This document shows, piece after piece, positions 33,592-61,885 of a stretch of 64,000 nt of DNA. Every line of letters starts with the position of its first letter. The stretch's first letter is position 1. The notes beneath the pieces were generated by a model. The model did no database searches, was not told the DNA's origin, and saw nothing but the letters and a program-made list of their open reading frames with translations. Source of the stretch: Nymphaea colorata. Its lineage: Eukaryota; Streptophyta; Magnoliopsida; Nymphaeales; Nymphaeaceae. The stretch covers positions 23,006,283-23,070,282 of the forward strand of contig NC_045148.1 in the NCBI RefSeq assembly GCF_008831285.2, in the 5' to 3' direction. The position numbers were made by a program, and so were the translations under genes.

Positions 33592-33907
33592 TCCGAGCTT
33601 CAGATGACGCACAAGAGAAAATAAGGGATGCGATGGAATCAACTGGACACAACAGAGAAGGCTGTAAATGGATGGAACAGAGCATCGTGCTCTTCTTCAT
33701 TTCACATATTTGAATCCTTTTTGTACATAATGAATTACAAAAATGAAAGAATATATTTTTTTTATGTAGCAAAAACATGCCATCAACCTTATAGAGAATT
33801 GCATGTGTGACAAGGAACACCACAATTCAATTTTACAGCTTTGCAATGGGCGTAAAGAAAACAGAGTTAATAACACAACTTTAAGAATTTGTTTTCCTTT
33901 TTCATCC
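33592..33907 (-). repeat. 3' LTR of B1
   Basis: Aligns along its length with 43,464-43,778. Shared phrases include ACGCACAAGAGAAA, GAGCATCGTGCTCTTCTTC, TTTCACATATTT, AATTTTACAGCTTT and GTAAAGAAAACA. The last bases (TTCATCC instead of TTCATAACA) are decayed. Confidence 0.85.
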
Positions 33908-33949
33908 TTTAAACTGGTGTGTGTGGGTCTCCAAAACCCAGTTTAAACT

Positions 33950-34273
33950 TTAAAATATTGAATTAACCTTTGACAAGAGACTTGGTAAATAGATCAGCCA
34001 TAGACTGTGACAATTGTTCCACTTTTGACTTGATCACACACTAGATGGCAGTCAATCTCCACATGCTTGGTGCATTCATGTAAAATGGGGCTCACTGCTA
34101 TTTGCAATGTTGTTTTGTTGTCACAAAGAAGCTACGCTGGTGAAGGAGGCACTTGGAGATCTTTCAGAAGATATCTTAGCCAGATAAGTTCATAGCAGGA
34201 GTTCGCAATAGCGTGATATTCTACTTCGGCTGAGATACGAGATATTGTGCTCAGTTTTTTTGTTTTCAGAAGA
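33950..34273 (-). pseudogene. RNase H region of B1 (broken)
   Basis: Minus-strand sequence downstream of RT. The counterpart at 51,939-51,748 in the second copy still shows ECTKHGEIDCHLVREQVKNG and LADLFTKSLVK, the C-terminal RNase H signature. Here the same region is scattered over frames. Confidence 0.65.
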
Positions 34274-35314
34274 TTAGATGTTCTCCCAAGTAAACACAGT
34301 CACCAGAGATTGATCTTCTGGTTTCTTTTCAAGCTCCCTAGTCGGCATAAAATTGAATTTGTCATCTACTAGAAGAAAAACTCCTTGACCTGGTGAAGTT
34401 TGAGATAGCGTAATACTTTTATAGCAGCATTGTAGTGAGTAGTTGTCAGTTTCTGCAAATGGTGGCTCAGAGAGTGAACAGAAAAAACTATTTCTGACCT
34501 GGTTATAGTCATATATATAAGATGCCCCCAAGTTTTTGGAACAATGAAGGTTTTTTGAAATTTTCAACATCATTGACTGCAAGGGTTTCACTAGGTTCCA
34601 TGGGATCCTCAGATGGCTTGGCATTGAGAAGGCGAAATTCATCAAGAATGCCACAAGCATACTTGCGCTGTGATGAAAATATTCCTTTCTTCCCTTTGGT
34701 AAGCTCTAGGCCAAGGAAATATTTTAAGTTGCCCATGCCTTTCATGCAAAATCTTTTGCCAAGATACAGTTTGAAGTTTTCTATGTATTTCATATCATTT
34801 CCTGCAATAATGACATCGTCGACGTACACCAAAATTGCCAAGCACACACTTTCTCTTTGATATGCACACAGTGTGTAATCACACTTGGATTGCATAAAAC
34901 CATAATTTACTACTTTTGACAAGAACTTCAAGAACCAGTTTGGGGAGTATGTTTCAGCCCATAGATAAACGTGTTTAGCTTGCACAATTTTGTTTCTCCT
35001 TTTTCGCAATGACTAGGAGGCAATGTATTGTAGACTTATTCATCCAATTTCTCGTTTAGAAAGGCATTATATACATACATTTGTTGCAGCATCCAATTTC
35101 GATTTGCAGTTGCTGCTATCAAACAACAAATAGTAACAAGTTTGGCGACAGGCGCATAGGCCTCATGATAATCCAAGCCTTCCACTTGTGCGTACCCTTT
35201 GGCCACTAATCTGGCTTTGAACCTTTCTATTTCACTATTTGCCTTATACTTGATCCTATAAAAGCATTTGCTGCTGATGGGTTTGACATTGGTTGAAGGA
35301 GAGATTAGCATCAA
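34274..35314 (-). pseudogene. Reverse transcriptase of B1 (broken)
   Basis: The N-terminal block at 35,314-35,036 contains CFYRIKYKANSEIERFKARL, VAKGYAQVEGLDYHEAYAPV and the start of the palm (LQQMYVYNAFLNEKLDE). The next piece (35,009-34,509) carries LVYVDDVIIAGND with an intact YVDD catalytic box, then LGKRFCMKGMGNLKYFLG. A further piece (34,660-34,274) is frameshifted. One stop (near 35,033) and frameshifts near 34,520-34,660 break it. It would be the polymerase of family B. Confidence 0.85.
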
Positions 35315-36480
35315 AGGTTCGGATTGAAGAGAGATTCAACTGAAAGTTTTTAAGAGCACCTGAAAAATACGAAAAAGACAGAAGTCACAAAGCTTATAAC
35401 AAACAATACCTTGTAGAAGCCCTTTTGCATGATGGTGATGGACTTCGTGAATCAGGATGGACCATACCACAGTAAAAATCCTTCAATAAAATGGATGGCT
35501 TTGACATTCTGGATTATTTGCAGTGGTTGTTGGGGGCTTGGTAAAGTTTCTTGTGAAGTATTTGTTTCAGCCTCACCACATGATTCTGAAACAATTTCAG
35601 GTGGTTATTCAATGTTTGTGCAATCAGTAGTCATGTCCTCATCTTGGCTTTCAGTCAGTTGACAAGAACAGGGGCCTTGCTCACTTGAATTTCTGTTCTC
35701 AAGTATATGATTGTCATCAAATACGAAATGAATAACTGGAAAAGACAAGACTTTGCTTTGATCCTTTGAGAGTTTGATGGGAAATTCTCTTTCATTGAAG
35801 ATAGCAATCCCTACTAACGATTTTTTTTGTTTCCAAATCAAGTAGTTTGTAGCCTTTTTGTTCAGCAGGATACCCAATGAACACACCTCGTTGAGCCCTG
35901 CAATCAAATTTTCCATGTAGTTTGAGGTAGGAAACAAAACACAACACACATTGATGCTTGTAAGTTGGTTTACTTTTAAATAATTTTTCAAAGGGAATTT
36001 GATTGTCCATTTTTTTTTTTTTGACAGGGTCCTATTTATTAAATATGTGGCTGTTAATACATGTAGGTCCCAACATTTTAAGGGTAGGCCTAAGTAAAAC
36101 TTGAGACCACGCGCCACATTCAAGATGTACCGATGCTTTCTCTAAGCCACGCCATTTTGTTGAGGCATGTAGGGGCATGAATGTTGATGTAGGATGTCTC
36201 TATTACAGAAAAAAAAATTATGTCATTTGAGAAGAACTTGGTTCCACTATCTATCATGATTCTAACACATCTATTTTGAATTGTTGCTCACTCATGTTAA
36301 TGGAATGTTTACGTAAATCACCTATTTCACTTTTATATTTCATTAGGTAAAACCACATGGCTCTCAAAAAATCATCCATAATAGACAAAAAGTAATGTGT
36401 TCGAGTATGTGATGCTTGGGGGTATGGTCCCCAAAGATCACAATGTAGCAAATCAAAAGGTTTAGAAAAACAATATTCAC
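35315..36480 (-). pseudogene. Integrase and linker of B1 (broken)
   Basis: 36,451-36,254 holds LHCDLWGPYP, the first Asp of the copia D-D-E core, followed by SIMDDFLRAMWFYLMKYKSE. The second Asp and the QQNG-E block are recognisable only across shifted frames near 36,250-36,130. 36,123-35,605 holds the C-terminal part with [15 protein letters not shown] and [15 protein letters not shown], with a frameshift near 36,015 at a long A-tract. The linker then carries [19 protein letters not shown]. It would insert the cDNA into chromosomes. Confidence 0.75.
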
Positions 36481-37035
36481 TTAATTTGAATCACTTTAGA
36501 TTGTTTAGCAACACGACAGACTTTAGAGAAATTATTTGACAACTTAATGATAGTCATGCTTTCAGAGCATTTGTGATTCTTTGAGTGAGATGGGTGCCCA
36601 AGTCTCGGATGCCAAACATCAAAATCTAATTGAGTGGGTTTCGTAAACAAGCTGTCTACAGTGGAAATTGAAGAGTCTGCCTGATGAATTGCCCAACTCA
36701 GTCCTCATCATGGAGATCGGGTCCTGCGCAAAGCACCTAGCAGTCGGGAAAATCAAACGACATTTGGTTTGCTGAATAAATATGCTCACAGATAGCATGG
36801 TGTAAGCAAAATTGGAAGATAATACACGTTTTCAAGAAAAATGGAAGCTGACAAAACAACTTTATGGACATGTGTAGCACAAACCGTTCTGTTGTTAGAA
36901 ACTCTAATAGAAAATGAAACAACTAATTTTGTATCATCTAGCAGTGATTGAAGGCATCATGATGTGTGGTGACTAGCACCAATATCTATTACCCAGGTGT
37001 CAAGTTTGAAGGATGACATACCTGCAAAGTTTAAT
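36481..37035 (-). pseudogene. Protease and pre-integrase region of B1 (broken)
   Basis: Near 37,000-36,960 the minus strand reads WVIDIGASHH, where the catalytic D-S/T-G triad has become D-I-G. The same D-I-G is seen in copy 2 (55,361-55,038), so it predates the duplication or is a family trait. A stop interrupts the frame after HH. A GHPSH-like pre-integrase block follows near 36,600. Confidence 0.65.
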
Positions 37036-37461
37036 TGGGTTACTGATCGATTTTTGAGGAGCTGTTTTAACTGAATATATTCATGTTGAGTTAGTGTTGG
37101 AGCAATGTCCTTGTTGGACTATTTTCCATGCATGGTGGAGATTAAGGTAGTGGAATCAGTTTTCTCTCCAACAGAGGCGTTGATAATAGCCCCCCTGCCA
37201 CTATTTTCCACCTTTAAAGTTTGGAGGGTAACCATTTAATTTGAAGTATCCTTCCTTTGAGGTCCAGCAATCTTGCCATAATTGCAGAAGTATTGTGGGT
37301 GCTTGTTTTGCTGCTCTTTGAAGGCCTTCAAGTCTGCACTTGCTGAGATACCAACATGCTCGACAGCACTACTTTGAAGACAAACTTCTCTCTGCTTCTC
37401 CTTTTGAAGGACCGGTGCATAAGTCTTTTGTAGAGAGGGCACGAAATCCATAAGATGAATA
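37036..37461 (-). pseudogene. 3' part of gag of B1, interrupted by element C
   Basis: 37,451-37,236 encodes MDFVPSLQKTYAPVLQKEKQ and a later NKHPQYFCNYGKIAGPQRK, a zinc-knuckle-like end. It continues the gag broken at 42,870 on the other side of element C. The same join is uninterrupted at 55,860-55,657 in copy 2. Confidence 0.75.
37457..37461. repeat. Target-site duplication of element C, left
   Basis: GAATA directly before the LTR start TGTTAAAATATAAAT, identical to GAATA at 42,870-42,874 after the 3' LTR. Five bases is the copia-type duplication length. Confidence 0.95.
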
Positions 37462-37824
37462 TGTTAAAATATAAATCCTTCACCAGCACATTGAAGAGGA
37501 GTCTCTTAGGATTCCACCTCCATGTAGAATGTGTTAAGATATTTAATGTCCTTGTAAAATGTGAAGAGTCTCCTAGGATTCTATGTTGTAGTTAATATCC
37601 TTGTTATATGGGAAGTCTCCTAAGATTCTATGTTGTAGTTAATATCCTTGTAATATGTGAAGTCTCTTAGGTTTCTATGATGTAATTAATGTCCTTGGAG
37701 CTTGTGAAATCTCCTAGGATTCTACGATTGGAGACTCTTAGAATTCTGGAAATGGGATTATAAATAGAGGCCGTGCAAACCATTTTGGCTACGGCTTCTT
37801 CTCCTCAGTTTCTTCTTGTTTTCA

Positions 37825-37883
<59 letters not shown>

Positions 37884-37935
37884 CCTGTGTGAGTGCTGTT
37901 TTCTGGTTACAGATATTGGTGCTAGATTTCTATCA
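37462..37935 (+). repeat. 5' LTR of element C
   Basis: 474 bases from TGTTAAAATAT to TTTCTATCA, followed directly by the primer-binding site. U3 is built from degenerate 47-bp tandem units beginning AGTCTCCTAGGATTCTATG (about 37,560-37,740). One more unit than in the 3' LTR, and a longer CT run (about 37,828-37,879), explain the 72-base length difference. Confidence 0.95.
37759..37767 (+). promoter_or_regulatory. TATA box in the 5' LTR of element C
   Basis: TATAAATAG, a textbook plant TATA box, lies in the middle of the LTR where U3 meets R; the same word is present in the 3' LTR near 42,717. Transcription would start some 30 bases downstream, near the ACGGCTTCTTCTCC stretch. Confidence 0.75.
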
Positions 37936-37947
37936 TGGTATCAGAGC
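37936..37947 (+). other. Primer-binding site of element C
   Basis: TGGTATCAGAGC, an exact match to the usual initiator tRNA-Met complementary site, abutting the LTR end CTATCA. Confidence 0.95.
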
Positions 37948-38156
37948 GCCAGGTTACATTATCTCTACCAAACGAAATGCCCAAACAGGTCTGATCTAGT
38001 TAGAACTCTTTTCTCATCTTGTCTCTATCCTGAATTTACTTTTCTCTTGCGCAATTCTTGTTCCTTTTTCTTCTTGCTTACCCAAGGACACATCTTGTTA
38101 TATCGTGTCTTCTATCCCTCTCATCTTCTACCTATATACCATTCCTTTCTGCTGTC

Positions 38157-39335
38157 ATGGAAAACCTTTCGCATTTTGGCATGTCCTCAAGTTTTCTTCC
38201 TCACCTTATTACTGAAAAACTCAACCATGAGAATTATTTGATCTGGAAAAGGCAAATCATGCCTTTCATAAGAAGTCAAGGCCTCTTTGGACATCTCGAT
38301 GGTTCAACAAAGGCACCACCAATATTCGTCTTACAGGAAATAAAAAATGAGGTAGGAGAAGTTATTGCTGTTCATGAAGACAACAATACTGAACATGCTA
38401 TGTGGATGAGACGTGATCAAAGTCTGGTTGCGTATATTTTGTCCACTTTATCTCAACAAGTGTTACTTTCAGTTTCTGATGATTGTACTGCAGAAGAATT
38501 ATGAGAAACCCTTGCTGATACCTTTTCCCAAATATCAGAAGCTCGAATTATGTACTTAAGGAAAGAATTTCAGAATTTGAGCAAAGGTTCAACGTCTATC
38601 ATGGATTATTTGGGGCGTATTAAGGCCGTCGCAGACCAACTTGCTACCTCAGGGAATAACATTTTTGATAAGGAAAAGGTGCAGCAAACCTTGAATGGAC
38701 TTGAGCATGATTATCATGCTTTTATTACAGCTCTTGAGGTCATTCCTGTTCTGCCTTCCTTCAACGAACTACAAGGTAAACTTCTCCAACATGAAATGAA
38801 TATGAAAAGAGTCATCGAAAGGACTGATCAAGGGAACTCCCAAAATGTGTTGGCTATGAATGTAAAGTTTGGTAAGAGCCATGGGAGCTCCAACCATGGT
38901 GGTCGTGGCATTCTACCAACACCACATAACCAAGGTATGTCTCCTTTGGATACTTCAAGAAAAATACCAATTTATTTTCAGTGCAACAAGAAAGGACACA
39001 TGAAGGCACAATGTTGGTTTAATCCTCAAAATAAAAACAAAGGGGTAAGACATGATTATAAACAAGGAGGACAAAGTTCTAAATCCACCGCTGAAGATAT
39101 GCAACAGCTATTGATGACCGCATTCTCAAAGATGACTATAAAGCAAAATGAGCAGGGAGAATGGTTCTTGGATTCAGGTGCAGCTACCCATGTGACAAGA
39201 AATGCAGGTAAATTGACTAACTTATCCCCTCATTACTATAGAAGTTGCATTATAACAGGTGATGGAAAATCTCATCCTATTACACATTGGAAATGCACAT
39301 ATTCCATTGTCATCCTCGTCTCTATCACTGTCTAA
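38157..39335 (+). pseudogene. Gag and protease of element C (one in-frame stop, one frameshift)
   Basis: ATG at 38,157 (MENLSHFGMSSSFLPHLI) is chosen because the copia Gag block LNHENYLIWKRQIMPFIRSQ follows at the usual distance; ATGs at 38,058 and 37,816 lie in the leader. A TGA at 38,502-38,504 interrupts it; the same frame then continues through DYLGRIKAVADQLATSG and EHDYHAFITALEVIP. The zinc knuckle QCNKKGHMKAQC lacks its first cysteine (Tyr instead). Protease WFLDSGAATHVT follows, with its catalytic DSG at 39,171-39,179. A small indel near 39,285 moves the rest into the next frame. Confidence 0.9.
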
Positions 39336-42300
39336 TGTTGTTCTTGCTCCCAATATCAAAAAGAACATCATATCCATTTCTAAACTCACTGATGATACAA
39401 GCTCTTCTGTTGAATTCACACGTTCTTCTGTCTATGTCAAGGACCTCCAAACGAAGAAAATGTTCGTCAGAGGGGAGCGTCAAGGGAATATGTACGTCCT
39501 CAAGGAATGTCTACCCAAGGATTCATCCACTTTTGATATAGGATTGAAGACATTTTCTCTTTCTCATAATGCGTCATCAGTGCCAAGTTCTTGCCATTTT
39601 CAATCAAAAGTAAGGGGCCCTAACCAATTTTTGGAGTCTGATTTGTGGCATAGTGGGCTAGGACACTGTGGTCGACATTTCATTGAAAAACTTGTCACAG
39701 ATAGTCTCATTCCAATATCAAGTTTACCTCTTACTTCAAGTGTCAAAAAATGTTGAAGTTGTGGACTTTGTAAGAGTCATGTTTTACCTTTCCATAATAT
39801 AAATCAAAGGGCTTCCAAACCTTTTGAAACTATTTTTTCTGATGTATGGGGGCCAGCCCCTATTGATTCCATGTCTGGGTCAAGATATTATGTCTTATTC
39901 ATTGACTCTTACTCACGTTTCACCTGGATTTACTTCATGAAACACAAATCAGAAGTACCTCACATATTTCGAAACTTCTATGCCATGATTCAAACTAAAT
40001 TTTCATCCAATGTGGTGCATTTTCAATGTGATGGAGGGGGAGAATATTCCTCGCTTGATTTTATTGAATTTCTACGTGAAAAAGGGATAACTAGACAAAT
40101 TTCCTGCCCTTACACACCACAACAAAATGGTGTAGTTGAGCGGAAACATCGACATATAGTTGAAAGCGCCATGAGCATGATGCATGATACTAATGTGCCC
40201 ATTTCCTTGCGGACTGAAGCCTTTCATACTGCTGTATACATAATAAATTGTTTGCCTATGACACTCTTGATGTCTAAATCGCCATATTTTACACTCTTAG
40301 GCAAACAACCTGATTACAAGAACTTGAAGGTTTTTGGTTGTGTATGCTATGTTCACGTTGATGCTGCCTTGAGGAACAAGTTTCAAGACAAAGCTATTCA
40401 ATGTAGATTCGATGGATATACTGATGAATATAAAGGTTTTCGATGCTATGATCCAACAACTAAACGTATCAAAACTTCAAGAAATGTCATTTTTGATGAA
40501 CATAGTTTTGATAATACAAATGAAATGCCTATGACCATTGAATCTTATGATCCCTAGACCAGTACACAGTTATTCAATGCAGATACTGTTATAGAAAATG
40601 ATGTGCCTCAAAGTGAAGATTCAAAGAGAGCAATACAACTGTCGGATATGGCTCAAAGTGAAAATCAAGAAGATCCAACACAGTCATCAAGTCATCACGA
40701 AAACAATAATGAAGAACAAAGCAACGATGCACATCGGTATTCGGGTCTTATCTACAGTCGACGACTAAGGGACAGAGATGCTCACAGTGAAGAAGACAAC
40801 ATGCCCCACCTTAGAAGATCCCAACGCATTCGTCATCCCATTCACAGGTGGGTTAGCTATGATTCTTTATCACTTGATTTTCAGTTATTCATGGCAAAAC
40901 TTGGCAAGGAGGAAGAACCTACTTCATTTGATCAAACATCAAAATCACATCATTGGAGAAAGGCTATGAAAGAAGAAATGGATGCCTTGCATGAATGTGG
41001 AACATGGGAGATCGTTCCGAGGCCACATGAAAAGAACGTAGTGGGCTCCAAATGGGTATACAAAATTAAATACAAACCTGACGGTAGCATACAATGACAC
41101 AAAACAAGGTTAGTAGCAAAAGGGTTTACACAACAATATGGAGAAGATTATGATGAGACATTCAGCCCTGTGATCAAAATGAGAACAATTCGTGTGATTA
41201 TATCATTGGCAGTTGAATATGGATGGAGACTACATCAAATGGACGTGAAGAATGTTTTTCTTCATGGTGATTTAAGGGAGGAAGTATATATGGAACAACC
41301 TCCAGGATACACGAAAGGTGACTCTCATGCATGGGTTTGCAAACTAAGAAAATCTATTTATGGACTTAAACAGGCCTCACGTTCGTGGTTTGACAGTTTC
41401 TCTTGCAAGATTCAAGAATGTGGTTTTCGAAGATGTCCTCTAGATCACTCTCTTTTCATTTATTGAAAGGAAAACATATTTACTTTACTTCTTATATATG
41501 TTGATGATATTGTTATCACAGGAAATTCAGAAAAACACATAGAAGAAGCTAAAGTTTTGATGATGCAAAACTTCAAAATGAAAGAGCTTGGTGATTTACG
41601 ATTCTTTCTTGGAGTGGAGATTGATAGGCACAATAATCGCCTCACACTGACACAACAGAAATACACGTTGGATCTGCTAAAAAAGTCAGGTATGTCTGAT
41701 TGTAAGCCTGTTGGAACTCCTAGTGTTCTAAATCAAAGACTAAGTGCTCAAGATGGGGAGTTATATGAAGATCCTACGCAATATCGAAGTATTGTTGGGG
41801 CACTTCAATATCTTACATTTACTAGACCAGATATTATATATGCTGTGAATCAAGTATCTCAATTTATGCATGCACCTAAAGATACTCACATGGATGCTGT
41901 CAAAAAAATATTAAGATATCTTAAAGGGACAGCAGGAGATGGCTTAGTTTATGGTAAGAGTGAAAATATAACTACTGGACATCAACTTATGACATTCACA
42001 GATGCAGATTGGGCTGGAGATCCCGATCAAAGAAAGTCCATTTCTGGTTTTTGTATTTTCATTGGACGTAATCTTGTGTCTTGGAGTTGTCGAAAGCAAA
42101 AGGCAGTAGCAAGATCCAACACTGAAGCTGAATACAGATGCATGGCTTCAGGTACTGCTGAAGTCACATGGGTTAGACATTTCCTAGAAGACATTGGAGA
42201 AAAGATTAAAACATCAATGTTAATGTGCGATAATCAAAGCGCTATTAACATTGCCTTTAATCCCGTACAACATGGTCGAACAAAGCACATTGAGATTGAT

Positions 42301-42396
42301 CAACACTTTGTTAGACAAAAGGTGGAAGACAAGGAGATTCAGCCTATTTATGTTCGTACAGATGAACAAGTTGCAGACTTTTTACAAAAGGATTAA
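39259..42396 (+). pseudogene. Integrase, RT and RNase H of element C (four in-frame stops)
   Basis: One frame runs through with stops at 39,754, 40,555, 41,095 and 41,464. Pre-integrase: LWHSGLGHCGRHF and SCGLCK. Integrase D-D-E: FSDVWGP, CDGGGEY, QQNGVVERKHR. RT: HWRKAMKEEMDAL, WVYKIKYKPDGS, LHQMDVKNVFLHGDL, SIYGLKQASRSWF and an intact YVDDIVITG box (about 41,497). RNase H: TFTDADWAGD, NTEAEYRCMASG, CDNQSAINIAFNP and KHIEIDQHFV. A one-base indel near 42,385 shifts the last 30 or so codons before the polypurine tract. All catalytic motifs remain readable. Confidence 0.92.
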
Positions 42397-42458
42397 CAAA
42401 GGAACAATTCTGGTTTCTAAAAGGCAAGTTGTACATGGTGCAAAACCATGCACAACTT

Positions 42459-42467
42459 GAGGGAGGG
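42459..42467 (+). other. Polypurine tract of element C
   Basis: GAGGGAGGG immediately precedes the 3' LTR start TGTTAAAATAT. Confidence 0.85.
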
Positions 42468-42869
42468 TGTTAAAATATAAATCCTTCACCAGCACGTTGA
42501 AGAAGAGTCTCTTAGGATTCCACCTCCTTGTAGAATGTGTTAAGATATTTAATGTCCTTGTAACATGTGAAGAGTCACCTAGGATTCTATGTTGTAGTTA
42601 ATATCCTTGTAATATGTGAAGTCTCTTAGTTTCTATGATGTAATTAATGTCCTTGGAGCTTGTGAAATCTCCTAGGTTTCTACGATTGGAGACTCTTAGA
42701 ATTCTGGAAATGGGATTATAAATAGAGGCCGTGCAAACCATTTTGGCTACGGCTTCTTCTCCTCAGTTTCTTCTTGTTTTCATTCTCTCTCTCTCTCCCT
42801 CTCTCTATCTCTATCTTCCTGCGTGGGTGCTGTTTTCTGGTTACAGATATTGGTGCTAGATTTCTATCA
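42468..42869 (+). repeat. 3' LTR of element C
   Basis: 402 bases, same ends as the 5' LTR and few substitutions. It lacks one 47-bp U3 unit and has a shorter, differently interrupted CT run. It retains the TATAAATAG box. Confidence 0.95.
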
Positions 42870-43450: not shown

Positions 43451-43451
43451 G

Positions 43452-43463
43452 GCTCTGAGACCA
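43452..43463 (-). other. Primer-binding site of B1
   Basis: Minus strand TGGTCTCAGAGC, one base different from the canonical site, directly next to the LTR end and one base before the gag ATG. Confidence 0.85.
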
Positions 43464-43778
43464 TGCGAGTATCAATGTACGCACAAGAGAAATTCAAGGC
43501 TGTGATAGAATCAACAGGAACAACAGAGAAGGCTGAGCATGATGGAACAAAGCATCGTGCTCTTCTTCCTTTCACATATTTAAACTCTTTCTTTACATAA
43601 TCAATTACAGGCATAAAAGAATATTTCCTATTATAACAGAATTATGCCTTCAAACTTCTAGAGAATTCCACATGCGTGACAAGGAAGACCACTATTCAAT
43701 TTTACAGCTTTACAATATGTGTAAAGAAAACAAAGTTAACAACAAAGTTTTAATAATTGGTTTTCATTTTTCATAACA
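43464..43778 (-). repeat. 5' LTR of B1
   Basis: 315 bases bounded by TG/CA (minus: TGTTATGAAAAATG ... GATACTCGCA). Matches 33,592-33,907, the truncated copy at 51,549-51,698 and (opposite strand) 56,312-56,540. Confidence 0.88.
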
Positions 43779-51698: not shown

Positions 51699-51719
51699 CC
51701 CCTCCTTCAAATTGGTGAA

Positions 51720-52300: not shown

Positions 52301-53150
52301 ATAGCAAAAACTATTTCTGGCCTGGTTATAGTCAGATATATAAGATGCCCCACAAGTCTTCGAAACAGTGAAGGACTTTTTAAATCTTATCCATCATTGG
52401 CAGCAAGGGTTTGACAAGGTTCCGTGGGATCCTCAGATGGCTTGGCATTGAGAAGGCTTAATTCATCAATAATGCCACAAGGATACTTGCGCTGTGACAA
52501 AAATATTCATGTCTTCCCTTTGCTAGGCTCTAGGCGAAGGAAATATTTTAAGTTGACCATGTCTTTCATGCAAAATCTTTTGCCAAGATACATTTGAAGT
52601 TTTCTAGGTATTCCGTATCATTTCCTATAACAACGAGAGCGTTGATGTACACCAAAACTACCATGAACACCCTTTCTTTTTGATATGCACACAGTGTATA
52701 ATCACACTTGGATTGCATAAAACCATAGCTCACCACTTCTGACGAGAACTTCAAGAACCTGTTTTGAGGAGCATGTTTCCGCCCATAGATATACTGGTTT
52801 CGCTTGCACAATTTTGTTTCTCTTTTTTCGCAATAACTTGGAGGCAATGTCATGTAGATTTCTTCATTCAATTTCCCGTTTAGAAAGAAGTTATACACAT
52901 CCATTTGTTGCGGCACCCAATTTCGTTTTGCAGCTATTGCAATCAAACAACAATAATAACAAGTTTGGCGGCAGCAGCATAGGTCTCATGGAAATCCAAA
53001 CCTTTTGCATACCCTTTGGCCACTAATATGGCATTCAACCTTTCTATTTCACCATTCGCCTTATACTTGATCCGATAAACTCACTTGCAGCTGATGGGTT
53101 TGACATTATTTGAAGGGGAGACTAGGGTCCAAGTATTGTTTGATTCCACC
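52301..53150 (-). pseudogene. Reverse transcriptase of B2 (broken, catalytic box lost)
   Basis: 52,946-52,566 encodes WVPQQMDVYNFFLNGKLNEE, NQYIYGRKHAPQNRFLKF and a LVYINALVVIGND box where YVDD has become YINA. Both catalytic aspartates are gone. Flanking RT blocks are frameshifted. Colinear with 34,509-35,314. Confidence 0.8.
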
Positions 53151-54760
53151 GCCATCATTTCTACATGCATGGCTCTGCCTGACTAAAGGATGAAGGTTTT
53201 GTTTGAAGAAAGATATTCAACAGGAAGCTTTTAAGAGCAGCTGAAAAATGGGAAAAATACAACTTATGACAAATGATACCATGTGGAAGCCCTTTTCCGT
53301 GATGGTGATGGACTATGTGAATCAGGATGGACCATACCACACTAAAAATCCTTCCATAAAATGGATGGCTTTGATATTCTTGATGATTTACAGACTCACT
53401 GTTGAGGACTTGGTAAAGTTTCTAGCGAAGTATTTGTTTCAACCTCATCACTTGATTCTAAAACAATTTCAGGTGGTTGTTCAATGTTTGTACAATCAGT
53501 AGTCATGACATCATCTTGGTTTTCAGTCAGTTGACAAGAACAAGGGCCTTGCTCACTTGAATTTCTGCTCTCAAGTGTATGATTGTCATCAAATGTGAGA
53601 GGAATAACTAGAAAATGTGAGACTTTGCTCCGATCCTTTGAGAATTTGAAGGGAAATTCAGTTTCATTGAAGACCATATCCCTACAAATGACTTTTTTTT
53701 TGTTTCTAAATCAAGTAGATTGTATCCTTTTTGTTCAATAGGATACCCAATGAACACACCTCGCTGGACCTTGTGACTAGTGATAACGGATCGGATTCGG
53801 ATCCAATATATCCTTAATCATATCAGCTTTTTCGGATATTCAAATATTCAGATCCGAATTCGAATAAAGAAGTCATACCCAAACCCGAAATCCAATTTTA
53901 CGATCCGAATCTGTTTTCTATATTTTTATTTTAATCCAAATTTTGAACCAGATTTTGCTAATTTTCAAAATTTAATAGCAGTAGATATAGGATATTTATC
54001 TAAAAATGAATCTGATCTGAATTTGCATTTGAATTTGTTCGAATATTTATGTATATCTGAATCTGAATTTGTATATGATTTGATGCCATTTATTAAATCT
54101 GAATCCAATCTGATTTCCTAATTGGATATTACTTTTTTTTTCCACATCCGATTTTTTTTGTTCGGATTGGTCAGATATCCAACTCAAATCGAATATATTT
54201 ACATCCCTACATGTGACCGAATTTCCATGTGCTTTGAGGTTGGTAGAAAAATACAAACAACCAAACACGCATATACGATCATAACATGGTTTTCTTTTAA
54301 ATAATTTTTCAAAGGTCATTCATTGTCAAGTTCCTTTTTTTTTTGATGGGGTCCTATTTATTAAATATGTGGCTGTTAATGCACGTAAGTCCCAACATTT
54401 TAAGGGTAGACCTGACTGAAACTTGAGAGCATACACCAAGATGTGCTGACGCTTTCTCCCAACTATGCAATTTTGTTGAGGCATGTAGGGGCATGAATGT
54501 TGATGTAGGATCTCTCTATCACGGAAAAAAAAATTGTCATTTGAGAAGAACTCGGTTCCACTATCTATCCTATTTTCAACACATCTATTTTGAACTGTTT
54601 CCTAGTCATGTTATTGAAATGTTTAAGCAAATCACCTACTTCACGTTTATACTTCAATAGGTAAACCCACATGGCTCTTGAAAGATCATCCATAATAGAC
54701 AAAAGGTAATGTGCTTGAGTTTGGGATGCTTGGAAAGCATTATTCCCAAGAGCTTTAGTA
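53151..54760 (-). pseudogene. Integrase and linker of B2, interrupted by a MITE
   Basis: 53,677-53,396 holds FNETEFPFKFSKDRSK and [19 protein letters not shown], matching the linker of copy 1. 54,319-54,220 holds MTFEKLFKRKP and CVFGCLYFSTNLKAHGNS, the integrase C-terminal region. It is then cut by the 432-bp element at 53,778-54,209. The core region (54,760-54,450) is in scattered frames. Confidence 0.75.
53778..54209. mobile_element. 432-bp MITE inside B2
   Basis: Right end (reverse complement) TAGGGATGTAAATATATTC; left end TAGTGATAACGGATCGG. Flanking 8-mers CTTGTGAC (53,770-53,777) and CATGTGAC (54,210-54,217) agree at 7 of 8 bases. Copy 1 has an uninterrupted sequence here (about 35,897), so this is an empty-site comparison inside the window. 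The body is full of GGATCCGAAT/GGATATTCAAAT words. Non-coding. Confidence 0.85.
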
Positions 54761-55447
54761 AACAGAAACTAGCAAATCAAAAGGTTTAGCAAAACATGAT
54801 TCACTTAATTTGAACATCAATCAATATTGTTTAGCAACACTACATACTTCACAGAAATGATTTGACAACTTAATGATAGAGTCATGTTTTCATTGCATTT
54901 GATTCTTCGAGCAGGATGGGTGCCCAAGTCTCATATGCCAAACATCAAAATCTGATTGAGTGGGTTTCGTGAACAAGCAATCTACAGTTGAAAGAGGTGA
55001 CTTGAAAATGAAAAATACCCCTGATGAATCTCCCAGCTCAGTCCTCGTCATGGAGATCGGGTCCTGCACAAAGCACCCAGTAGTGGGGAAAATCAAATGA
55101 CGCTTGGTTTTCTGTTATAAATCTGCTCACTGACAATATGTTGTAAGCAAACTTTGGAAGATAATACACTTTTTGAAGAAAAATGGAAGATGATAGAACG
55201 GCTTTACCGACACGTGTAGCATATACCGTCCTGTTGTCCTGAAATCTAATTGAAAATGGAACAACTAATTTTGTGTCATCTGGCATTGATTTATGACAGC
55301 ATGACATGTGGTGACTGGCACCAATATCTATGACCCAGGTGTCTAGTTTGAAGAATGACATAGCTAGAAAGTTTATTTAGGTTACTGATCGATTTTTGAG
55401 GAGTTGATTGAATTGAATAAATTCATCTTCAGTTAGAATTGGAGCAA
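54761..55447 (-). pseudogene. Protease and pre-integrase region of B2 (broken)
   Basis: 55,361-55,038 encodes DTWVIDIGASHHMSCCHKSM and then FQDNRTVYATRVGKAVL. The protease triad is D-I-G. 55,096-54,890 continues with FDVWHMRLGHPSCSKNQ, the pre-integrase H-x3-H block. A frameshift between 55,038 and 55,096 separates them. Confidence 0.8.
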
Positions 55448-55848
55448 TGTCCTTGCTGAACTATTTTCCATGCATGGTGGAGATTAAGGCATTGGAATCA
55501 GTTTTCCCTCCAATAGAGGCCTTGATAATATCCCCTTTGTCTTGCTCTATTTTCCACCTATAAAGTTTGGACGGTAACCATTTAAATTGAAGCATCGTTC
55601 CTTTCATGTCCTGCAATCTTGCAGTAATTGCAGAAGTATTGTGGGTGCCTGTTTTGTTAGATTTCGAATGCATTCAAATTTCCACTTGCTGAGAGACCAA
55701 CATACTCGACAGCACTAGTTTGAAGACGAGCTTCTCCGCTTGAGGGACCAGTGCATGTCTTTTGTAGAGAAGGCAAGGGTTTCATATGTTGAATTTGCCT
55801 TCTTATAGCATTGAATGAATCATTCAATCTCATAGGAAATTTTTTTTC
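55448..55848 (-). pseudogene. 3' part of gag of B2
   Basis: 55,848-55,657 encodes FPMRLNDSFNAIRRQIQHMK and a later LQTSAVEYVGLSASGNLNAF. The next piece (55,673-55,461) is frameshifted. The first 36 bases of the alignable gag (55,842-55,807) occur again, inverted, at 60,949-60,984. Confidence 0.8.
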
Positions 55849-55860
55849 ATCAAGACCCAC

Positions 55861-56311
55861 GACATCTGGTTACATGTATGGTGCATAGCCTTTACAAAAA
55901 TGACAAGTGCCCCCTGCCCACTTGTACTAGCTCCTTAGCCCACTTTTTGGGTACTTGGCATCCATGGGAGCCTATGCACAAGCCTGGGTATATAACCAGC
56001 TTTGAACATCCACCATGTCATCGACACTAGACTAAACACTTGAGAGAGAGAGAGAGATAGAGAGCTTCTCAGTGATGGAAATAGGGATGGGGAGCACAAG
56101 AAGAAGGGGTAGAGAGTTTATTTCCTCACTTAAGTGTAAAGTGTGTTGCAGAACGCCTCATGAGCTTGTTGTTGCCAACTCTACCATCATCAACATTGTC
56201 GTCCTCTTCTAAAGAGATTTACTAGAGAAAGTATGATTTAGCAATTTCCAACTTTCAAGAGGCTATGAAGCTCAAACGAAAGAATGTTAGGGTCTTCTAC
56301 CTCTTGGGATC
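55861..56311 (+). other. Fragment S, copy 2: TATA region and unidentified gene start
   Basis: Inverted copy of 43,779-44,235. TATATAA at 55,989-55,995 and an ATG at 56,075 open a 45-codon frame (MEIGMGSTRRRGREFISSLK and then CKVCCRTPHELVVANS), with a stop at about 56,210. The other frame, open in copy 1, is broken here. The family B LTR starts at 56,312. It looks like a promoter plus first coding part of an unknown host gene. Confidence 0.45.
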
Positions 56312-56540
56312 TGTTACAAAAATGAAAACTAATTCTTAAAGTTGTGTTATTAACTTTGTTTTCTTTACACCCATTGTAAAGGTGTAAAATTGCATCGTGG
56401 TGTTTTTTTGTCACGCATGTGGAATTCTCTAGAAGGTTGAAGGCATGATTCTGTTGTAATAGAAAATATTCTTTCATCCCTGTATTTGATTTTGTACAAA
56501 AAAGAGTATAAATATGTGAAACAAAGAAGAGCACGATGCC
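56312..56540 (+). repeat. 5' LTR of B2, truncated by element D
   Basis: TGTTACAAAAATGAAAAC onward is the reverse complement of 43,778-43,550 or so. It stops at AGAGCACGATGC, where element D begins. About 75 bases of the LTR end are missing; gag resumes at 60,363. Confidence 0.85.
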
Positions 56541-56640
56541 GAATATCGTGGGTGAAGATGAGCCAGCCGAATCTCATGGGTGAAGATGAGCCAGCCGAAT
56601 GTAGTGGGATAAGATGAGCCAGCCAAATGTCGTTGAAACC
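56541..56640 (+). repeat. 5' LTR remnant of element D (28-bp tandem units)
   Basis: Three and a half 28-bp units beginning AAGATGAGCCAGCC, matching the array at 60,112-60,225 in the 3' LTR. The TGTTAAAATT start of the LTR and its last 100 bases are missing. Confidence 0.75.
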
Positions 56641-56656
56641 AAAAACCATGGTGACT

Positions 56657-57090
56657 TAAACTAGTGACTTTCTTAATCGCGTGCACTGTTTCTGGCATCC
56701 AGCGGTTCAGGTAGCATTGCCAGCCTTCCACGATCCTCTAGAAGTCATCCCAAAACAGTTTGAGCAAGCATCGATCCAATCCCTACGATTGGTGGATTCC
56801 CTGCATTCTGTAGAGTGGTTCTTCGGTGAACTGGCCCCTTTCACTACTGTTTGCGATGCCAACCACCTTTTCCTATCAGACTTCATGGACAGCATCCCAA
56901 ATGAAGGCGAACCTAACAAGCCAAGCTCGATCACTGAGGTAGCCTCTCAGAGCTGGAATCCTCGAATTTGTGGCCGCCCCTCTCTTTCTTTCAAGTTTCT
57001 TCCTGCCCTCTATTTCTTCACTCACGCCACTGTTGTCGACCCCCATTGGGCCCCAAAAGGGTCAAACAGCATCGTCAAGCCATGGTGACT
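56657..57090 (+). other. 434-bp insert with a 135-codon open frame, flanked by 11-bp direct repeats
   Basis: CCATGGTGACT occurs at 56,646-56,656 and again at 57,080-57,090. Between them is non-LTR sequence with a single long open frame, 56,681-57,088 (MHCFWHPAVQVALPAFHD ... WAPKGSNSIVKPW). It includes HSVEWFFGELAPF and SSITEVASQSWNP. Family not recognised. GC content is higher than that of the neighbours. It may be captured host DNA; a divergent retroelement leader is the alternative. Confidence 0.45.
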
Positions 57091-57100
57091 CGTACTCGAC

Positions 57101-57120
57101 TGGTGACGTGATCAGAGCCA
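57101..57120 (+). other. Disrupted primer-binding site of element D
   Basis: TGGT, six extra bases (GACGTG), then ATCAGAGCCA. Without the extra bases this is the canonical plant copia primer-binding site. Position upstream of gag fits. Confidence 0.55.
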
Positions 57121-57218
57121 GCCAGAATGTCTAGATTTCTGTAGTCTTCCCTGTGGCATTTTTTCTTCTCCTATGCATGGGAAGTCGGGTATTGAGTCCT
57201 CAGCATTAAGGAGCAGTC

Positions 57219-58140
57219 ATGGCCGACAGAGGAAAGAACAATGAGTCGGGAAGTATCAATGGCCATGAAAATGCCCAGGTGATATTTGATCTCTTCTATT
57301 TGCATCATTCAGATAATTTTGGAAGTGGGTTAGTATCTCAACAACTTATCAGTGATAACTATGCAATCTGGAGCAGAGTCATGATCGTGGCTCTATCAGC
57401 CAAAAACAAGCTAGGATTCGTTGATGGGACTATCAAAGAGCCTAAAGAGGATGAACATAATCGTATGTTGTGGGTACGATGTAACAATTTGGCTCTAGCA
57501 TGGATTCTTTATTCAATTAATAAGGAGATTCATGCTAGCATTGCTTATGCTGCCTCAGATCAAGTAATATGGGAGGAGTTAAAAGAAAGATATACTCAGA
57601 GTTTTGCACCAAGAGTCTTTCAGCTACACAGTTCAATACATCGATTACAACAAGAGTCCATGTCTGTTACTACATATTACACAAAACATGTTATGTAAAA
57701 ATCAAAGTGCTTTGGGAAGAATTAGATTACTACATTCCTGTGTCTGTGTTCATGTGGTGGCATAAAAAATTATTCAGATGAAATCCAAAGAGAACGTGTA
57801 ATTTAGTTCTGGAAGGGACTGAACGACTCATATGATGCTATTAGAGGACAGATTTTATTCCTTGTCCCTTATCCACAGTAAACAAATTATGCTCTAGTCT
57901 TGCAGGAGGAACAGCAGCGTGAAGCAAGATTCACGCCACGCCATCAGCCTCTCACACCATCTTGGCAATATCACACAATCATATTCCCAAAGCAGCATCA
58001 CTTTAACAAAGTTTCAAGTTTCAATGCAATAAAGAAAGACGTCAAAGACGACCATTCTGTAGCTATTGTCATAACACAGGTCATGTGAAAGATAAATGTT
58101 TCAAGTTGAATGGCCATCCTCGAGGACATCGATTCCATGA
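57219..58140 (+). pseudogene. Gag of element D (frameshifted)
   Basis: ATG at 57,219 (MADRGKNNESGSINGHENAQ) is followed by VSQQLISDNYAIWSRVMIVA, FVDGTIKEPKEDEHNRMLWV and SIHRLQQESMSVTTYYTK, a typical copia capsid. The frame breaks near 57,698. A zinc knuckle with C-x2-C...GHVKDKCFKLNGHPRG is readable across frames near 58,055-58,130. Capsid packages the element RNA. Confidence 0.85.
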
Positions 58141-58720
58141 TCCAAACTTTCGGCCACCACCAGCTGCAGCTACCATTCATAATCAAAGGCGGGTGGACCT
58201 CCATGCAAGCGATGGTACTAGTTTCTCTAGCAGCAACAGTCAAACTTCCAAGGAAGTTGTGCCTTCATTCACTATGGTGAGTATCATAAACTCTTATCAC
58301 TTGTTAGAACTTCGTCTGCCTCTATCAATTAGTGTCTCCCATATATATCTTCATATAGTGTCTCCCATCTTCCTTGGATTGTCGATTCTGGAGCAAGTCG
58401 GTGCATTTGTGCCGATAGCTCTCTACTTCAAAAACCAACCAATTGCCGAGTACCTATAAACTTACCTAATCGACATACAATAACTGTCCATCAAACTAGT
58501 GATGTTAAACTTCCACCATTCACCCTCAAAAATTCCTTGTATATTTTCTCTTTCAAAGTGAACCTACTCTCTGTGAGTCAATTGAGCAAGGCACTAAACG
58601 TTTCTGTAACTTTCTTCCCTACTCATTATTTTGGCTCCGTTGACCAATGGTAACTTGACATTTAATGCAATGAAAGGCACAAGGTACCCTCTTTGTTGAC
58701 TTCACTTTCTCGTTTCTCTC
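58141..58720 (+). pseudogene. Protease region of element D (broken)
   Basis: Near 58,375-58,460 a shifted frame reads PWIVDSGASRCI, the copia protease signature with D-S-G intact. It is followed by LPPFTLKNSLYIFSFKVNLLSVSQLSK. The sequence then goes without a pre-integrase or integrase core to RT at 58,735. About 1-1.5 kb expected in a complete element is missing. Confidence 0.7.
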
Positions 58721-58729
58721 CTAAAAACC

Positions 58730-59370
58730 CTTGAAGTGGCAGTTCGACATAGGGAGTGGCGAGACACAATGAACTCAGAAATTAGTAGACTAGAGGAAAA
58801 CAACACTTGGACAATGAGCACTTCACCACAAGGAGTTAAGCCCATCAGTTGCAAGTGAGTTTACAAAATTGAGTTCTGATCAGACGGTACTACTGAGCCA
58901 TACAGGCCAAAAGGTTATTCCCAATAGGAGGGACTAGACTACAATGAGACATTTGTACCAGCTGCAAAAATGGTAACTGTCTGAACTTTACATTCAGTTG
59001 CTGTGGAAAATGATTGGTTATTATAATAAATGGATGTGAACAATGTCTTTCTTCATGGTGATTTGCTTGAAGAAGTACATATGCAAGTTCCACCAAGATA
59101 TGACTGAAAGGGGGAGAATCTGGTATGTAAATTACATAAATCTGTCTATGGTCTCAAACAGTCTCCTCGAAATTGGTTTCACAAATTGTCGTTGGCACTA
59201 GTGGAGTTTGGATTCAGTCAATCAAATGCCGAACACACATTATTCACTTACAAACAAGACCAATTTTGTGTTGTTTTTCTCGTTTATGTGGACGGCCTTA
59301 TTATTACGGGCAACAACAAGGAGCTGATTGACAAATTTAAGCAATTTTTATGTTAGAAATTTCTTGTGAA
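58730..59370 (+). pseudogene. Reverse transcriptase of element D (broken, YVDG)
   Basis: Residues REWRDTMNSEISRLEENNTW, CKWVYKIEF, MDVNNVFLHGDLLEEVHMQV, KSVYGLKQSPRNWFHK and FLVYVDGLIITGNNKE are readable in one frame interrupted by several stops. The second catalytic Asp of YVDD is Gly. Confidence 0.85.
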
Positions 59371-60039
59371 AGACTTGTACTCTTAAATATTTTTTGATTG
59401 CTTGTTCAAGTGCAGTAATTTATGTTTCACAGCAAATGTATGCTCTCAACATTATAAGCAAAACAAGTATAATGGGTGCCAAGCCAATGGAATTTCTAGC
59501 GGAATAAAAGCGCGGTCTCGAAGAAGGTACTCTCCTAAGCACACAAACCAATCTTCAAATGAGTGTGTTTTGTGATTATGATTGGGTGGCGTGTCAAGAA
59601 ATGAGAAGGTCCATAACTAGTTATTGTGTTCTTCTTGGTGATTCTCCAATTTCATGAAAGACAGAAAAACAGCCCATAGTATCTCACTCCATTGCAGAAG
59701 CAGAATACAAGGTGTTGGCAAATGCGGTATTTGAAGTGACATGCTTGAAATTCTTATTGTCGGATCTAGGCATGAGACATCTACAACCGACAAATCTATA
59801 CTGTGACAATCAGGCTGCCATGCATATTGCTGTCAATGCTGTTTTTAATAGCGTACCAAACATATAGATTTAGACTGTCATGTGGTATGAGAAAAAATAA
59901 ATCAAGGTGTAGTGAGAACCAGTTACATTAACAAAGATAAGCTGGCAGACTTATTCACTAAGGCCTTAGGCAAGGAAGCATTTAATCATCTTCTATTCAA
60001 ACTGAACATAAGAAACTCTAAACTTAGTTTGAGGGGGAG
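59371..60039 (+). pseudogene. RNase H of element D (broken) and polypurine tract
   Basis: Across two frames: DYDWVACQEMRRS, SIAEAEYKVLANAVFEVTCL, LYCDNQAAMHIAVNA and DKLADLFTKALGKEAFNHLL. All blocks of copia RNase H are traceable. GAGGGGGAG at 60,031-60,039 is the polypurine tract directly before the 3' LTR. Confidence 0.8.
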
Positions 60040-60345
60040 TGTTAAAATTAAGATTCGCTTCTTATCTTGACATCTTAACGATAAGATTTTCAGTTGGTTA
60101 GTGAAGCTGTTAAGATGAGCCAGCCAAATATCGTGGGAGAAGATGAGCCAACCAAATGTCATGGGATAAGATGAGCCAGGCAAATATCATGGGATAAGAT
60201 GAGCCAGGAAAATGTCGTTGAAACTAAAAACTGTGTACTACTTTTTCTTCTGTATATAGGTGTGTAAGATCAATAGTAAAATATGAAGCAATTCTCTGTT
60301 CTCTTCCTTGTGTTACATTCTTCCTTAACTCAAATAATTTCTACA
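60040..60345 (+). repeat. 3' LTR of element D
   Basis: 306 bases, TGTTAAAATTAAGATTCGC ... AATTTCTACA. Contains four tandem 28-bp units (60,112-60,225) and a possible TATA word (CTGTATATAGG, about 60,251). Confidence 0.8.
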
Positions 60346-60362
60346 TACTATAATACAGAGCC

Positions 60363-60984
60363 ATGGCGTCAACAGGCAAGGCTCCCAATTCTTCCAACTC
60401 TTTTTCAGCTAGTGGAGCAGACTCCTCTTATGGTAACAACATCATCACTATTGAAAACCTCTTTTTCTTTAATCATTCAGACAACCCTGGTACTATATCG
60501 GTTTCACAATTAGTAACCAGTGAAAACTACAAAACCTGGAGTCATGCTATGAGAATCGCATTGTCTACCAAAAACAACTTGACCTTTGTTGATGGTAGTC
60601 TTCCCAAACCCAGCGTTGCAGCTCCTGAGGTCATGAAGTGGAGGCCTTGCAATCACATGGTCTTTCATGGATTCTTAACTCCATCCCAAAATAATTATCA
60701 AGCAATATCATCTATGCCACCACAACTATTGAAGTGTGGGCAGACTTAAAGGACCGATTCACTGAAAGCACAAACCCCTCATAAGTACGAACTCAAGTCC
60801 TCCATTAGTCGTTTGAATCAAGAAAATATATTTGTTGCTCTTTATTTTACAATATTGGGATAAGCTTTCGTCCTATGATGTTATTTCGGAATGCTCTTGC
60901 ATTGCCTTGAAAGTGGTTGCTGAAAAGCAACAAGAAGAGAGAGTGATTAAATTTCCTATGAGATTGAATGATTCATTCAATGCT
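60363..60984 (+). pseudogene. 5' part of gag of B2 (inverted segment)
   Basis: ATG at 60,363 (MASTGKAPNSSNSFSASGAD), preceded by CAGAGCC, a leftover of the primer-binding site. It encodes NLFFFNHSDNPGTISVSQLV and FVDGSLPKPSVAAPE. After a frameshift (about 60,740-60,850) it continues YWDKLSSYDVISECSC and FPMRLNDSFNALR. It ends exactly where the gag at 55,842 takes over on the other strand. Confidence 0.85.
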
Positions 60985-61048
60985 CTACGAGTCTGCAGCA
61001 TTTTCTTAGAGTATAGCTCAGGCGTGTTAGCAGATGACATATATGCCG

Positions 61049-61669
61049 AAGGAAAGAAACGGGCGGCAAGTGTGATATAGCTCACATCTTTGAAGGTATG
61101 CTTCATGCAAATTACCTCATATGTCCGCAACACTGTTTCTCAATCCCTTCATCCTGAGGCAAAGGAAGGAAGAAAGTCGTGGCTGCCTGCACCTCTAAGG
61201 CCTTGTCCCTAAGGCGGCTAGCTTCTTTTGGCTGTTTCTCCACGTTATGGTCTGAAGGCAGGGGCAGAAGAAGATGTAGGACTGTTTCATGCATATTTAT
61301 ATTTATGAAATAATTACATAGTGTTTTGTTTGCCTAACAAGTCCTCGACGTTCAAAATTTAAAGTATTACTGCACTTCAGCGAAGGAATTTTTGGAATTT
61401 AAAGAGGAAACATCTTCTCAGTTCATTTGTAGTGTACATCTCCTGAGTTTCATTTTCTGTTGTTCCCTAGCAGAAGAAATTCGACTGCTCGCCACCAGTT
61501 AGAGGCTTTCCATAAAAGAGGTAAATCTATGGAGAAGCTTAATCATCATAAAAGAGGGTCCCGCAAGGTAAATTCTCATCATTTAACTTCTAGTTCTCAC
61601 ACAGGCTCTCCTTTTTCTTTTCTTCCGTTTTTGGTAATTTAATAAGAGGTTGAAACCTCACACCCTTTC
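61049..61669. repeat. Fragment T, copy 2 of paralogous segment
   Basis: Direct match to 45,019-45,835, with two gaps. It is joined at 61,671 directly to the sequence found at 49,201 in copy 1. Confidence 0.9.
61529..61567 (+). CDS. Candidate short first exon in fragment T, copy 2
   Basis: ATG, 13 codons (MEKLNHHKRGSRK) and AAG|GTAAAT. Ten of the 13 residues equal those of the copy at 45,703, and the reading frame is kept. No downstream exon is visible. Confidence 0.3.
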
Positions 61670-61670
61670 C

Positions 61671-61885
61671 CTCGGTGCATCACAAAAGACTGGATCAATA
61701 AGTAGATTAATATTATATGTCTAAAAGAGAGGTAGACTTGCGGCTGCACAACAAGTTGAGCCAGCTCAAACTCGATTTGATCGAACTCACTCGTTGAAGC
61801 TCAACTCGAAGTTGACTTGTTTATAAATGAGTTGAGCTCGAGTTCAAATGTATACTCAAAATGTTAAACGAGTCGAGATTGATTT
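61671..61885. repeat. Truncated copy of the 49,201-49,410 region including a TIR-element end
   Basis: CTCGGTGCATCACAAAAGAC and TAAGTAGATTAATATTAT match 49,201 onward. From 61,738 the CGGCTGCACAACAAGTTGAG end of the small TIR element follows. The match stops after TGTTAAACGAGTCGAG, so the element lacks its right half here. Confidence 0.8.

What the first reader, a model, noticed from the sequence alone, without database searches (positions are those of the whole stretch)
33592..61885. Two direct paralogous segments that share a copia element and its flanks, each with private later insertions
33.6-49.4 kb and 51.5-61.9 kb carry the same family B element, the same S fragment beside its 5' LTR, the same T fragment and the same TIR-element end. 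Copy 1 alone has element C, a MITE-like insert and a 3.4-kb block. Copy 2 alone has element D, a MITE and an inversion. The element was therefore in place before the duplication, and both copies then evolved separately. This allows events to be ordered without an outgroup.
Basis: seen in the sequence. Interest (0 to 1): 0.75.

Follow-up and report, generated by a model that had tools for sequence, protein, structure and literature searches.

The report
Copia insertion copied by segmental duplication
One old jumping-gene insertion in a plant genome was copied many times together with its neighbouring DNA, first into side-by-side copies and later to other chromosomes, so the pair seen here is a small part of a larger, fairly ordinary repeated block.

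Summary
The two segments are real. LTRs group by side of the element, not by copy: 11 of 11 3' LTRs form one clade, support 98/95; grouping by copy is rejected, AU p 0.008.

The two-copy picture is too small. The pair lies in a 36.5-kb unit (27825-64278) followed head to tail by a second unit and the start of a third on C11. Related copies lie on C4, C11, C13, C15 and small contigs. Unit 2 shows three sub-copies: full B; B with element D; and a solo LTR at the same site.

Of the features called private, only element C and the inversion were found in the window alone. Element D, the copy-2 MITE, the MITE-like insert and the 3.4-kb block occur in other copies.

Copy 2 is a mosaic: its inversion removed about 5 kb, so its S and T come from different sub-copies.

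A new member of a known kind: LTR retrotransposons carried by plant segmental duplications.

The parts
27825..64000 (+). Tandem unit 1; it runs 278 bases beyond the window, where unit 2 starts with the sequence of 27825
33467..33591 (+). Left flank L of the B insertion, ending in 5 bases GATCT (probable target-site copy)
33592..33904 (-). 3' LTR of B, copy 1 (alignable end; the LTR may reach 33909)
33910..37461 (-). B internal part, copy 1, 3' portion (RVT_2 at 34509-35009)
37462..42869 (+). Element C, copia type, 5-base target-site copies GAATA at 37457-37461 and 42870-42874, LTRs 3.3% apart; found in the window only
42870..43463 (-). B internal part, copy 1, 5' portion (gag side and primer-binding site)
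43464..43778 (-). 5' LTR of B, copy 1
43779..44224 (+). S, right flank of the B insertion, copy 1
44225..45017 (+). MITE-like insert region of copy 1; whole in some other genomic copies (e.g. L006, L007), to about 44840-44856 in others
45018..45839 (+). T, copy 1
45840..49200 (-). 3.4-kb block with a reverse-transcriptase zinc-binding (zf-RVT) remnant, below Pfam's cut-off; the block is also in the C15 copy
49201..49429 (+). TIR-like end, copy 1
49430..51550 (+). Spacer between copies 1 and 2; also in the C15 copy
51551..51692 (-). Truncated 3' LTR of B, copy 2; the junction is found at 20 other places
51693..55841 (-). B internal part, copy 2, with the MITE at 53767-54221 (MITE also in the C15, Eloc and C13 copies)
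55842..60990 (.). Inverted block, found in the window only: S 55843-56311, part of the B 5' LTR 56312-56538, D 56539-60346, B gag side 60347-60990; about 42 bases (55801-55842 and 60949-60990) repeated in inverted orientation at the ends
56539..60346 (+). Element D, copia type, inside the B 5' LTR; shared with other genomic copies
61014..61671 (+). T of copy 2 (61048-61671) with its left neighbour; by adjacency it belongs to the solo-LTR sub-copy (delta)
61671..61889 (+). TIR-like end, copy 2 side
61890..64000 (+). End part of unit 1, 95% identical to unit 2 without gaps

Best explanation
Together with spacer DNA these form a unit of about 36-41 kb that was repeated head to tail and also copied to other chromosomes. 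Most likely this happened by unequal homologous recombination within arrays and by ectopic repair of double-strand breaks. In the window's unit C then inserted, and a break repaired with inversion left a 42-base inverted duplication and removed about 5 kb, including the delta LTR and S. Shown from sequence: one insertion, three sub-copies, tandem units on C11, and C and the inversion in the window alone among the places scored. Inferred: the recombination and repair pathways, and absolute times.
For: LTRs sort by side, not copy (AU p 0.008). L + LTR + S without internal sequence in the delta sub-copy. Six copy-2-type B copies with the same left flank L, of seven places fetched. Unit 2 on C11 is collinear with the window's unit apart from its own indels, lacks C and the inversion, and holds epsilon and delta in order; unit 3 starts at C11:23111744. 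The C15 copy is collinear with 27825-55841, lacking C and two short stretches. C and inversion junctions are whole in the window only: 0 of 15 other copy-1-type places and 0 of 39 other scored places. Distances rank in order (K2P): LTR pair 0.214; copy 1-copy 2 B internal parts 0.13-0.18; unit-unit 0.04-0.06 in most pieces, 0.08 in the TIR end and 0.09 in S of one pair; C LTRs 0.033.
Against: T is less diverged than S and the TIR end even when alpha is compared with delta alone (W1-Ddelta: T 0.076, S 0.141, TIR end 0.179), which mosaicism does not explain. The lead of the LTR-pair distance (0.185, SE 0.022) over the copy distance (about 0.145) is weak alone, and in copy 2 the LTR pair (0.148 over 142 bases) shows no lead; the tree carries the order. 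The target-site copy of B matches in 4 of 5 bases at best (GATCT / GATCC). Support for 5' LTRs plus solo LTRs as one side is moderate (82/80). The C11 array shows tandem order, but many other places show single or inverted sub-copies.
Confidence: 0.88

Rival explanations
1. One reading: one local duplication gave two segments that then gained private insertions.
For: The window alone looks like this; B does precede the duplication.
Against: 16 copy-1-type places and at least 21 places with the copy-2 left junction, window included in both; a third sub-copy (delta); and D, both MITE-type inserts and the 3.4-kb block shared with other copies.
Confidence: 0.05
2. B inserted independently into each copy, or S is part of a longer element B, so the shared flank says nothing about duplication.
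For: S is joined to a B LTR at 24 of 29 fetched places outside the window.
Against: LTRs group by side; the delta sub-copy has L-LTR-S; the C5 element of the family has another left flank.
Confidence: 0.02
3. The unit is itself a very large mobile element (TIR or rolling-circle type) that carries B as cargo.
For: Places on four large contigs; the TIR-like end lies near a common edge of copies 1 and 2.
Against: Units sit head to tail on C11; similarity to the window breaks off at many different points in other copies (43842, 44305, 44840, 45009, 45079); no transposase or helicase domain in the three stretches of the unit scanned in six frames (other parts such as 49430-51550 were not scanned so).
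Confidence: 0.05
4. The array and dispersed copies are assembly artefacts (haplotype copies kept apart or misjoins).
For: Some copies are on small contigs (C40, C186, C230, C238, C256, C374, C409, C465, C755) and may be haplotype duplicates.
Against: Units differ by 4-9% in substitutions and by large private indels, and the same junction recurs at many places.
Confidence: 0.03

Closest known systems
Segmental duplications and solo LTRs at the common bean Co-2 resistance cluster (PMC6102362; abstract and Results sections 16 and 17 read)
   Same: Local and ectopic segmental duplications of 10-23 kb, about 80% identity for the old ones, high share of solo LTRs, junctions by end joining and by homologous recombination, exchange between chromosomes.
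   Different: There the copies carry NLR genes and lie with satellite DNA near chromosome ends. Here 0 of 40 scored matches to the window's NLR lie on C15, the contig with most listed places of the unit, and no telomere array was seen in the five 3-kb contig ends read (two copies of TTTAGGG in one, none in four).
Ty1/copia LTR retrotransposons (recalled family definition)
   Same: LTRs with TG/CA ends, tRNA-like primer-binding site (read by eye), RVT_2 domain in B, gag domains in C and D.
   Different: B is decayed, and in the places examined it multiplied mainly by DNA duplication; one independent insertion (C5) was found among seven fetched 3' LTR places. Flanks of the other rows were not all checked.
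Maize chromosome 1 379-kb region ordered by breakage, transposition, end joining and homologous recombination (PMC2686159; listing and start of abstract only)
   Same: Events reconstructed from breakpoints and elements.
   Different: Details not read; no comparison of sequence made.

Membership tests
Ty1/copia LTR retrotransposon (element B) | Paired LTRs with TG...CA ends | tested here: met
   LTR pair 33592-33904 and 43464-43778, 81% with gaps; ends read; the window's 3' LTR begins TC where six of seven relatives begin TGCG or TGCA and one TGTG
Ty1/copia LTR retrotransposon (element B) | Copia-type reverse transcriptase domain | tested here: met
   RVT_2, E 1.5e-18
Ty1/copia LTR retrotransposon (element B) | Integrase encoded before reverse transcriptase | not tested
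   No integrase domain search was made on B; frames are broken
Ty1/copia LTR retrotransposon (element B) | Short target-site duplication | tested here: inconclusive
   GATCT, TATCT or (once) GATCA on the left; GATCC, GATTC or AATCC-like on the right
Solo LTR (delta sub-copy) | Single LTR between the two flanks of a full element, no internal part | tested here: met
   From C11:23106442: L, LTR, S contiguous; left flank checked in this place and, with a truncated LTR, in Eloc, not in the other delta loci
Segmental duplication (at least 1 kb, at least 90% identity; recalled definition) | Length and identity, unit against unit | tested here: met
   C15 copy against window 92% with gaps over several kb; by substitutions 94-96% in five of seven pieces compared, 93% in the TIR end, 91% in S
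Segmental duplication (at least 1 kb, at least 90% identity; recalled definition) | Length and identity, copy 1 against copy 2 | tested here: not met
   84-88% by substitutions in B internal parts: same process, too old for the usual cut-off

The most novel reading that the evidence does not exclude
A 36-41-kb unit in which, in the parts scanned, no gene domain other than retroelement remnants was found, founded on one copia insertion, has spread by repeated DNA duplication over four chromosomes and above all over one 7.3-Mb contig (C15: 70 of 157 listed places), without the NLR family next to it. C15 would then be a fast-evolving, duplication-prone chromosome region in which a dead retroelement outnumbers its own transposed relatives.
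Probability: 0.2. Interest if true: 0.5.

Novelty: new member of a known kind. Interest (0 to 1): 0.3.

Why it matters
It is a clean natural record in which insertion, duplication, LTR-LTR recombination, array growth, interchromosomal copying and inversion can be ordered from one genome, because LTR side, flanks and empty sites give independent checks. It also shows that insertions called private from a pair in one window can be shared widely once the whole genome is searched, and that an inversion with loss can join flanks of different paralogues.

Tried and rejected
Simple two-copy duplication: rejected after the S search and the fetched copies. Independent B insertions: rejected by LTR trees. 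NLR-driven amplification: tested with the window's NLR stretch 11029-11823; 0 of 40 scored matches (273 candidates) lie on C15, and the best match outside the window is on C1 (91%), so not supported. A gene in S or in the unit: no Pfam family for the S frame or in six frames of 28201-33002; one zf-RVT and one gag_3 trace, both below Pfam's cut-off, in 45001-49202 and 61501-64000. RNA families: 0 at gathering score. Subtelomeric location: none of the five contig ends read has a telomere array, which does not settle it. Left unanswered: the genome-wide spread of the left edge of the unit (window 27600-28400; some searches did not complete); right edges (61650-62150; 49201-49650) did not complete and not pursued. 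Literature searches answered: (one search was rejected for a sign in a term).

Counts to read with care: the genome search scores only about the best 40 candidates of each query (116, 167, 152, 138, 541 and 273 candidates). In one search I used 157 places, window included and several per locus: 16 of 41 rows (dropping 25 that match the C LTR part), 40 of 40, 21 of 40 (dropping 14 that match only about 1-190 and 5 that match only 199-400), 40 of 40 and 40 of 41 (dropping one partial row). Trees: one search used 31 of 33 LTRs found (two were the same places as others); one search left out L001, L002 and L006 for the same reason; one search used 33 rows, leaving out five rows of the group with a 43-base inner inversion and one truncated solo LTR; one search used 16 rows, and its groups were named after the first tree had been seen.
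Full report
Setting. The window is G000:C11:23006283-23070282 of a 407.8-Mb assembly with 783 contigs.

Observation. Self-BLAST recovers both segments: copy 1 33592-49429 and copy 2 51551-61889. B runs on the minus strand; its LTRs are 33592-33904 and 43464-43778, and its primer-binding site lies next to the right-hand LTR (read by eye; tRNA-iMet type by recall). S follows the 5' LTR, then T, then a TIR-like end. In copy 2 the stretch 55842-60990 is inverted. Element C (37462-42869) has 5-base target-site copies GAATA and LTRs 3.3% apart without gaps.

One insertion, then duplication. If B had inserted separately into each copy, the two LTRs of a copy should be closest to each other. They are not. 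In a tree of 31 LTRs the five 3' LTRs form one side of a branch, 93/90. Rooted with the B relative on C5, which has a different left flank, 11 of 11 3' LTRs form a clade (98/95), inside which copy-1-type and copy-2-type LTRs are separate; the 17 5' LTRs and 4 solo LTRs lie on the other side (82/80). Holding copy-1 LTRs together costs 18 log-likelihood units, AU p 0.008 (groups named after the first tree).

Not two copies but a family. S has 40 scored matches of 116 candidates. Of the 29 fetched places outside the window, 24 have S joined to a B LTR and 5 are cut at 43842 inside S. An S tree of 31 rows gives three groups: 21 rows with copy 1 (100/99), 6 rows with copy 2 (100/100) and 4 rows of a third type (100/98). 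The copy-2 left junction (51351-51750) is present in full, or all but 1-2 end bases, at 21 of 40 scored places, window included, at 92-95% for the other 20; 14 rows match only the spacer side and 5 only the LTR side. The five LTR-side places, with C15:4913493, proved to be copy-2-type B with a whole 3' LTR and the same left flank L (6 of 7 places fetched; the seventh is C5). So the copy-2 lineage had L too, and its truncation came later.

Unit and array. A stretch of C15 is collinear with window 27825-55841 at 92-93% and holds copy 1 and copy 2 up to part of D, without C and without 36484-36696 and 53298-53418. To the right of the window on C11, 64279-105461 (window scale) repeats 27825-64278 in order, with its own insertions of about 4 and 7.6 kb, a deletion of 50856-52375 (with the copy-2 left junction), and smaller gaps; a third unit starts at 105462. 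In unit 2 the order after copy-2 B is D, B 5' LTR part, S (epsilon), about 2.5 kb, then L, an LTR and S again (delta), about 1 kb, T, and the unit end. Delta is a solo LTR at the same insertion site.

What is private. C: the junction 37300-37560 is whole in the window only; 15 of 15 other copy-1-type places stop at the empty site, and the C LTR part alone fills the other 25 rows, on ten contigs. Inversion: the junction 55700-55960 is whole in the window only; 39 of 39 other scored places stop at 55841 or 55842. Shared, hence older than at least some of the copying: D (L022, L023, L026, L029, L030, C15, C13, unit 2), the copy-2 MITE (C15, Eloc, C13), the MITE-like insert (copy-1 and epsilon types), the 3.4-kb block (C15).

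The inversion made a mosaic. Both ends of the inverted block carry the same 42 bases in opposite orientation, and compared with unit 2 about 5 kb is lost, from the epsilon S to the start of T, including the delta LTR and S. This fits repair of staggered breaks with filling in and end joining (inference). So S and B of copy 2 are epsilon and T is delta; S-T comparisons in the window mix two paralogues.

Divergence and order. W1-W2: B internal 0.12-0.16, S 0.167, TIR end 0.183, T 0.087. T is also low between alpha and delta alone (0.076 against S 0.141 and TIR end 0.179), which remains unexplained; conversion or constraint are possible. In a 1.4-kb piece of B, copies 1 and 2 differ by 0.136 in C15 and 0.143 in the window, while units differ by 0.038-0.058, so copies have not been homogenised within units. 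K2P order: B insertion 0.214 from the copy-1 LTR pair (0.167 from 142 bases of the copy-2 pair); copy duplication 0.13-0.18 (B internal); unit spread 0.04-0.09; C 0.033. The LTR-pair distances alone do not separate insertion from duplication; the tree does. With recalled rates of 6.5e-9 to 1.3e-8 per site and year the four values give roughly 8-16, 5-14, 1.5-7 and 1.3-2.6 million years; only the order is firm.

Where. Of 157 listed places from five queries, 70 lie on C15, 33 on C11, 18 on C4, 5 on C13, 1 on C5 (the independent insertion) and 30 on nine small contigs. Lists are capped and one locus can give several places, so these are a biased sample. The NLR beside the unit has its best match outside the window on C1 and none of 40 on C15: the 27825 border seems to join regions of different history.

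Comparison. Common bean Co-2 shows the same set of processes: local and ectopic segmental duplications, solo LTRs, end joining and homologous recombination (PMC6102362; abstract and Results sections 16 and 17 read). I found no new kind of element. Verdict: new member of a known kind, with a well-resolved order of events.

Noticed in passing
10176-13644 and 15950-16749: NLR-like sequence in broken frames and a partial second copy (76% identity); nearest relative outside the window on C1 at 91%.
   Followed up: partly
L003, L008-L012, L014, L025 (window 43520-43562 and 44840/48926): Eight copy-1-type places share a 43-base inner inversion in the B 5' LTR; six of them (not L003, L025) also join 44840 to 48926 in inverted orientation.
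   Followed up: partly
60346-60347: The 3' end of D's LTR abuts the primer-binding site of B, and 88 bases of B's 5' LTR on that side are missing, as if D and B had recombined rather than D simply inserting (read by eye).
   Followed up: no
51509-51552: A 12-base direct repeat with 20 bases between its copies lies at the copy-2 truncation point, a possible trace of end joining with copied filler (read by eye).
   Followed up: no
21589-22426 and 26508-27394: Direct repeat, 81%, just left of the unit border.
   Followed up: no
1327-2112: Long open copia reverse-transcriptase fragment on the minus strand (RVT_2, E 7e-42).
   Followed up: no
45018-45839 and 61048-61671: T is about half as diverged as its neighbours between sub-copies; reason unknown.
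   Followed up: partly
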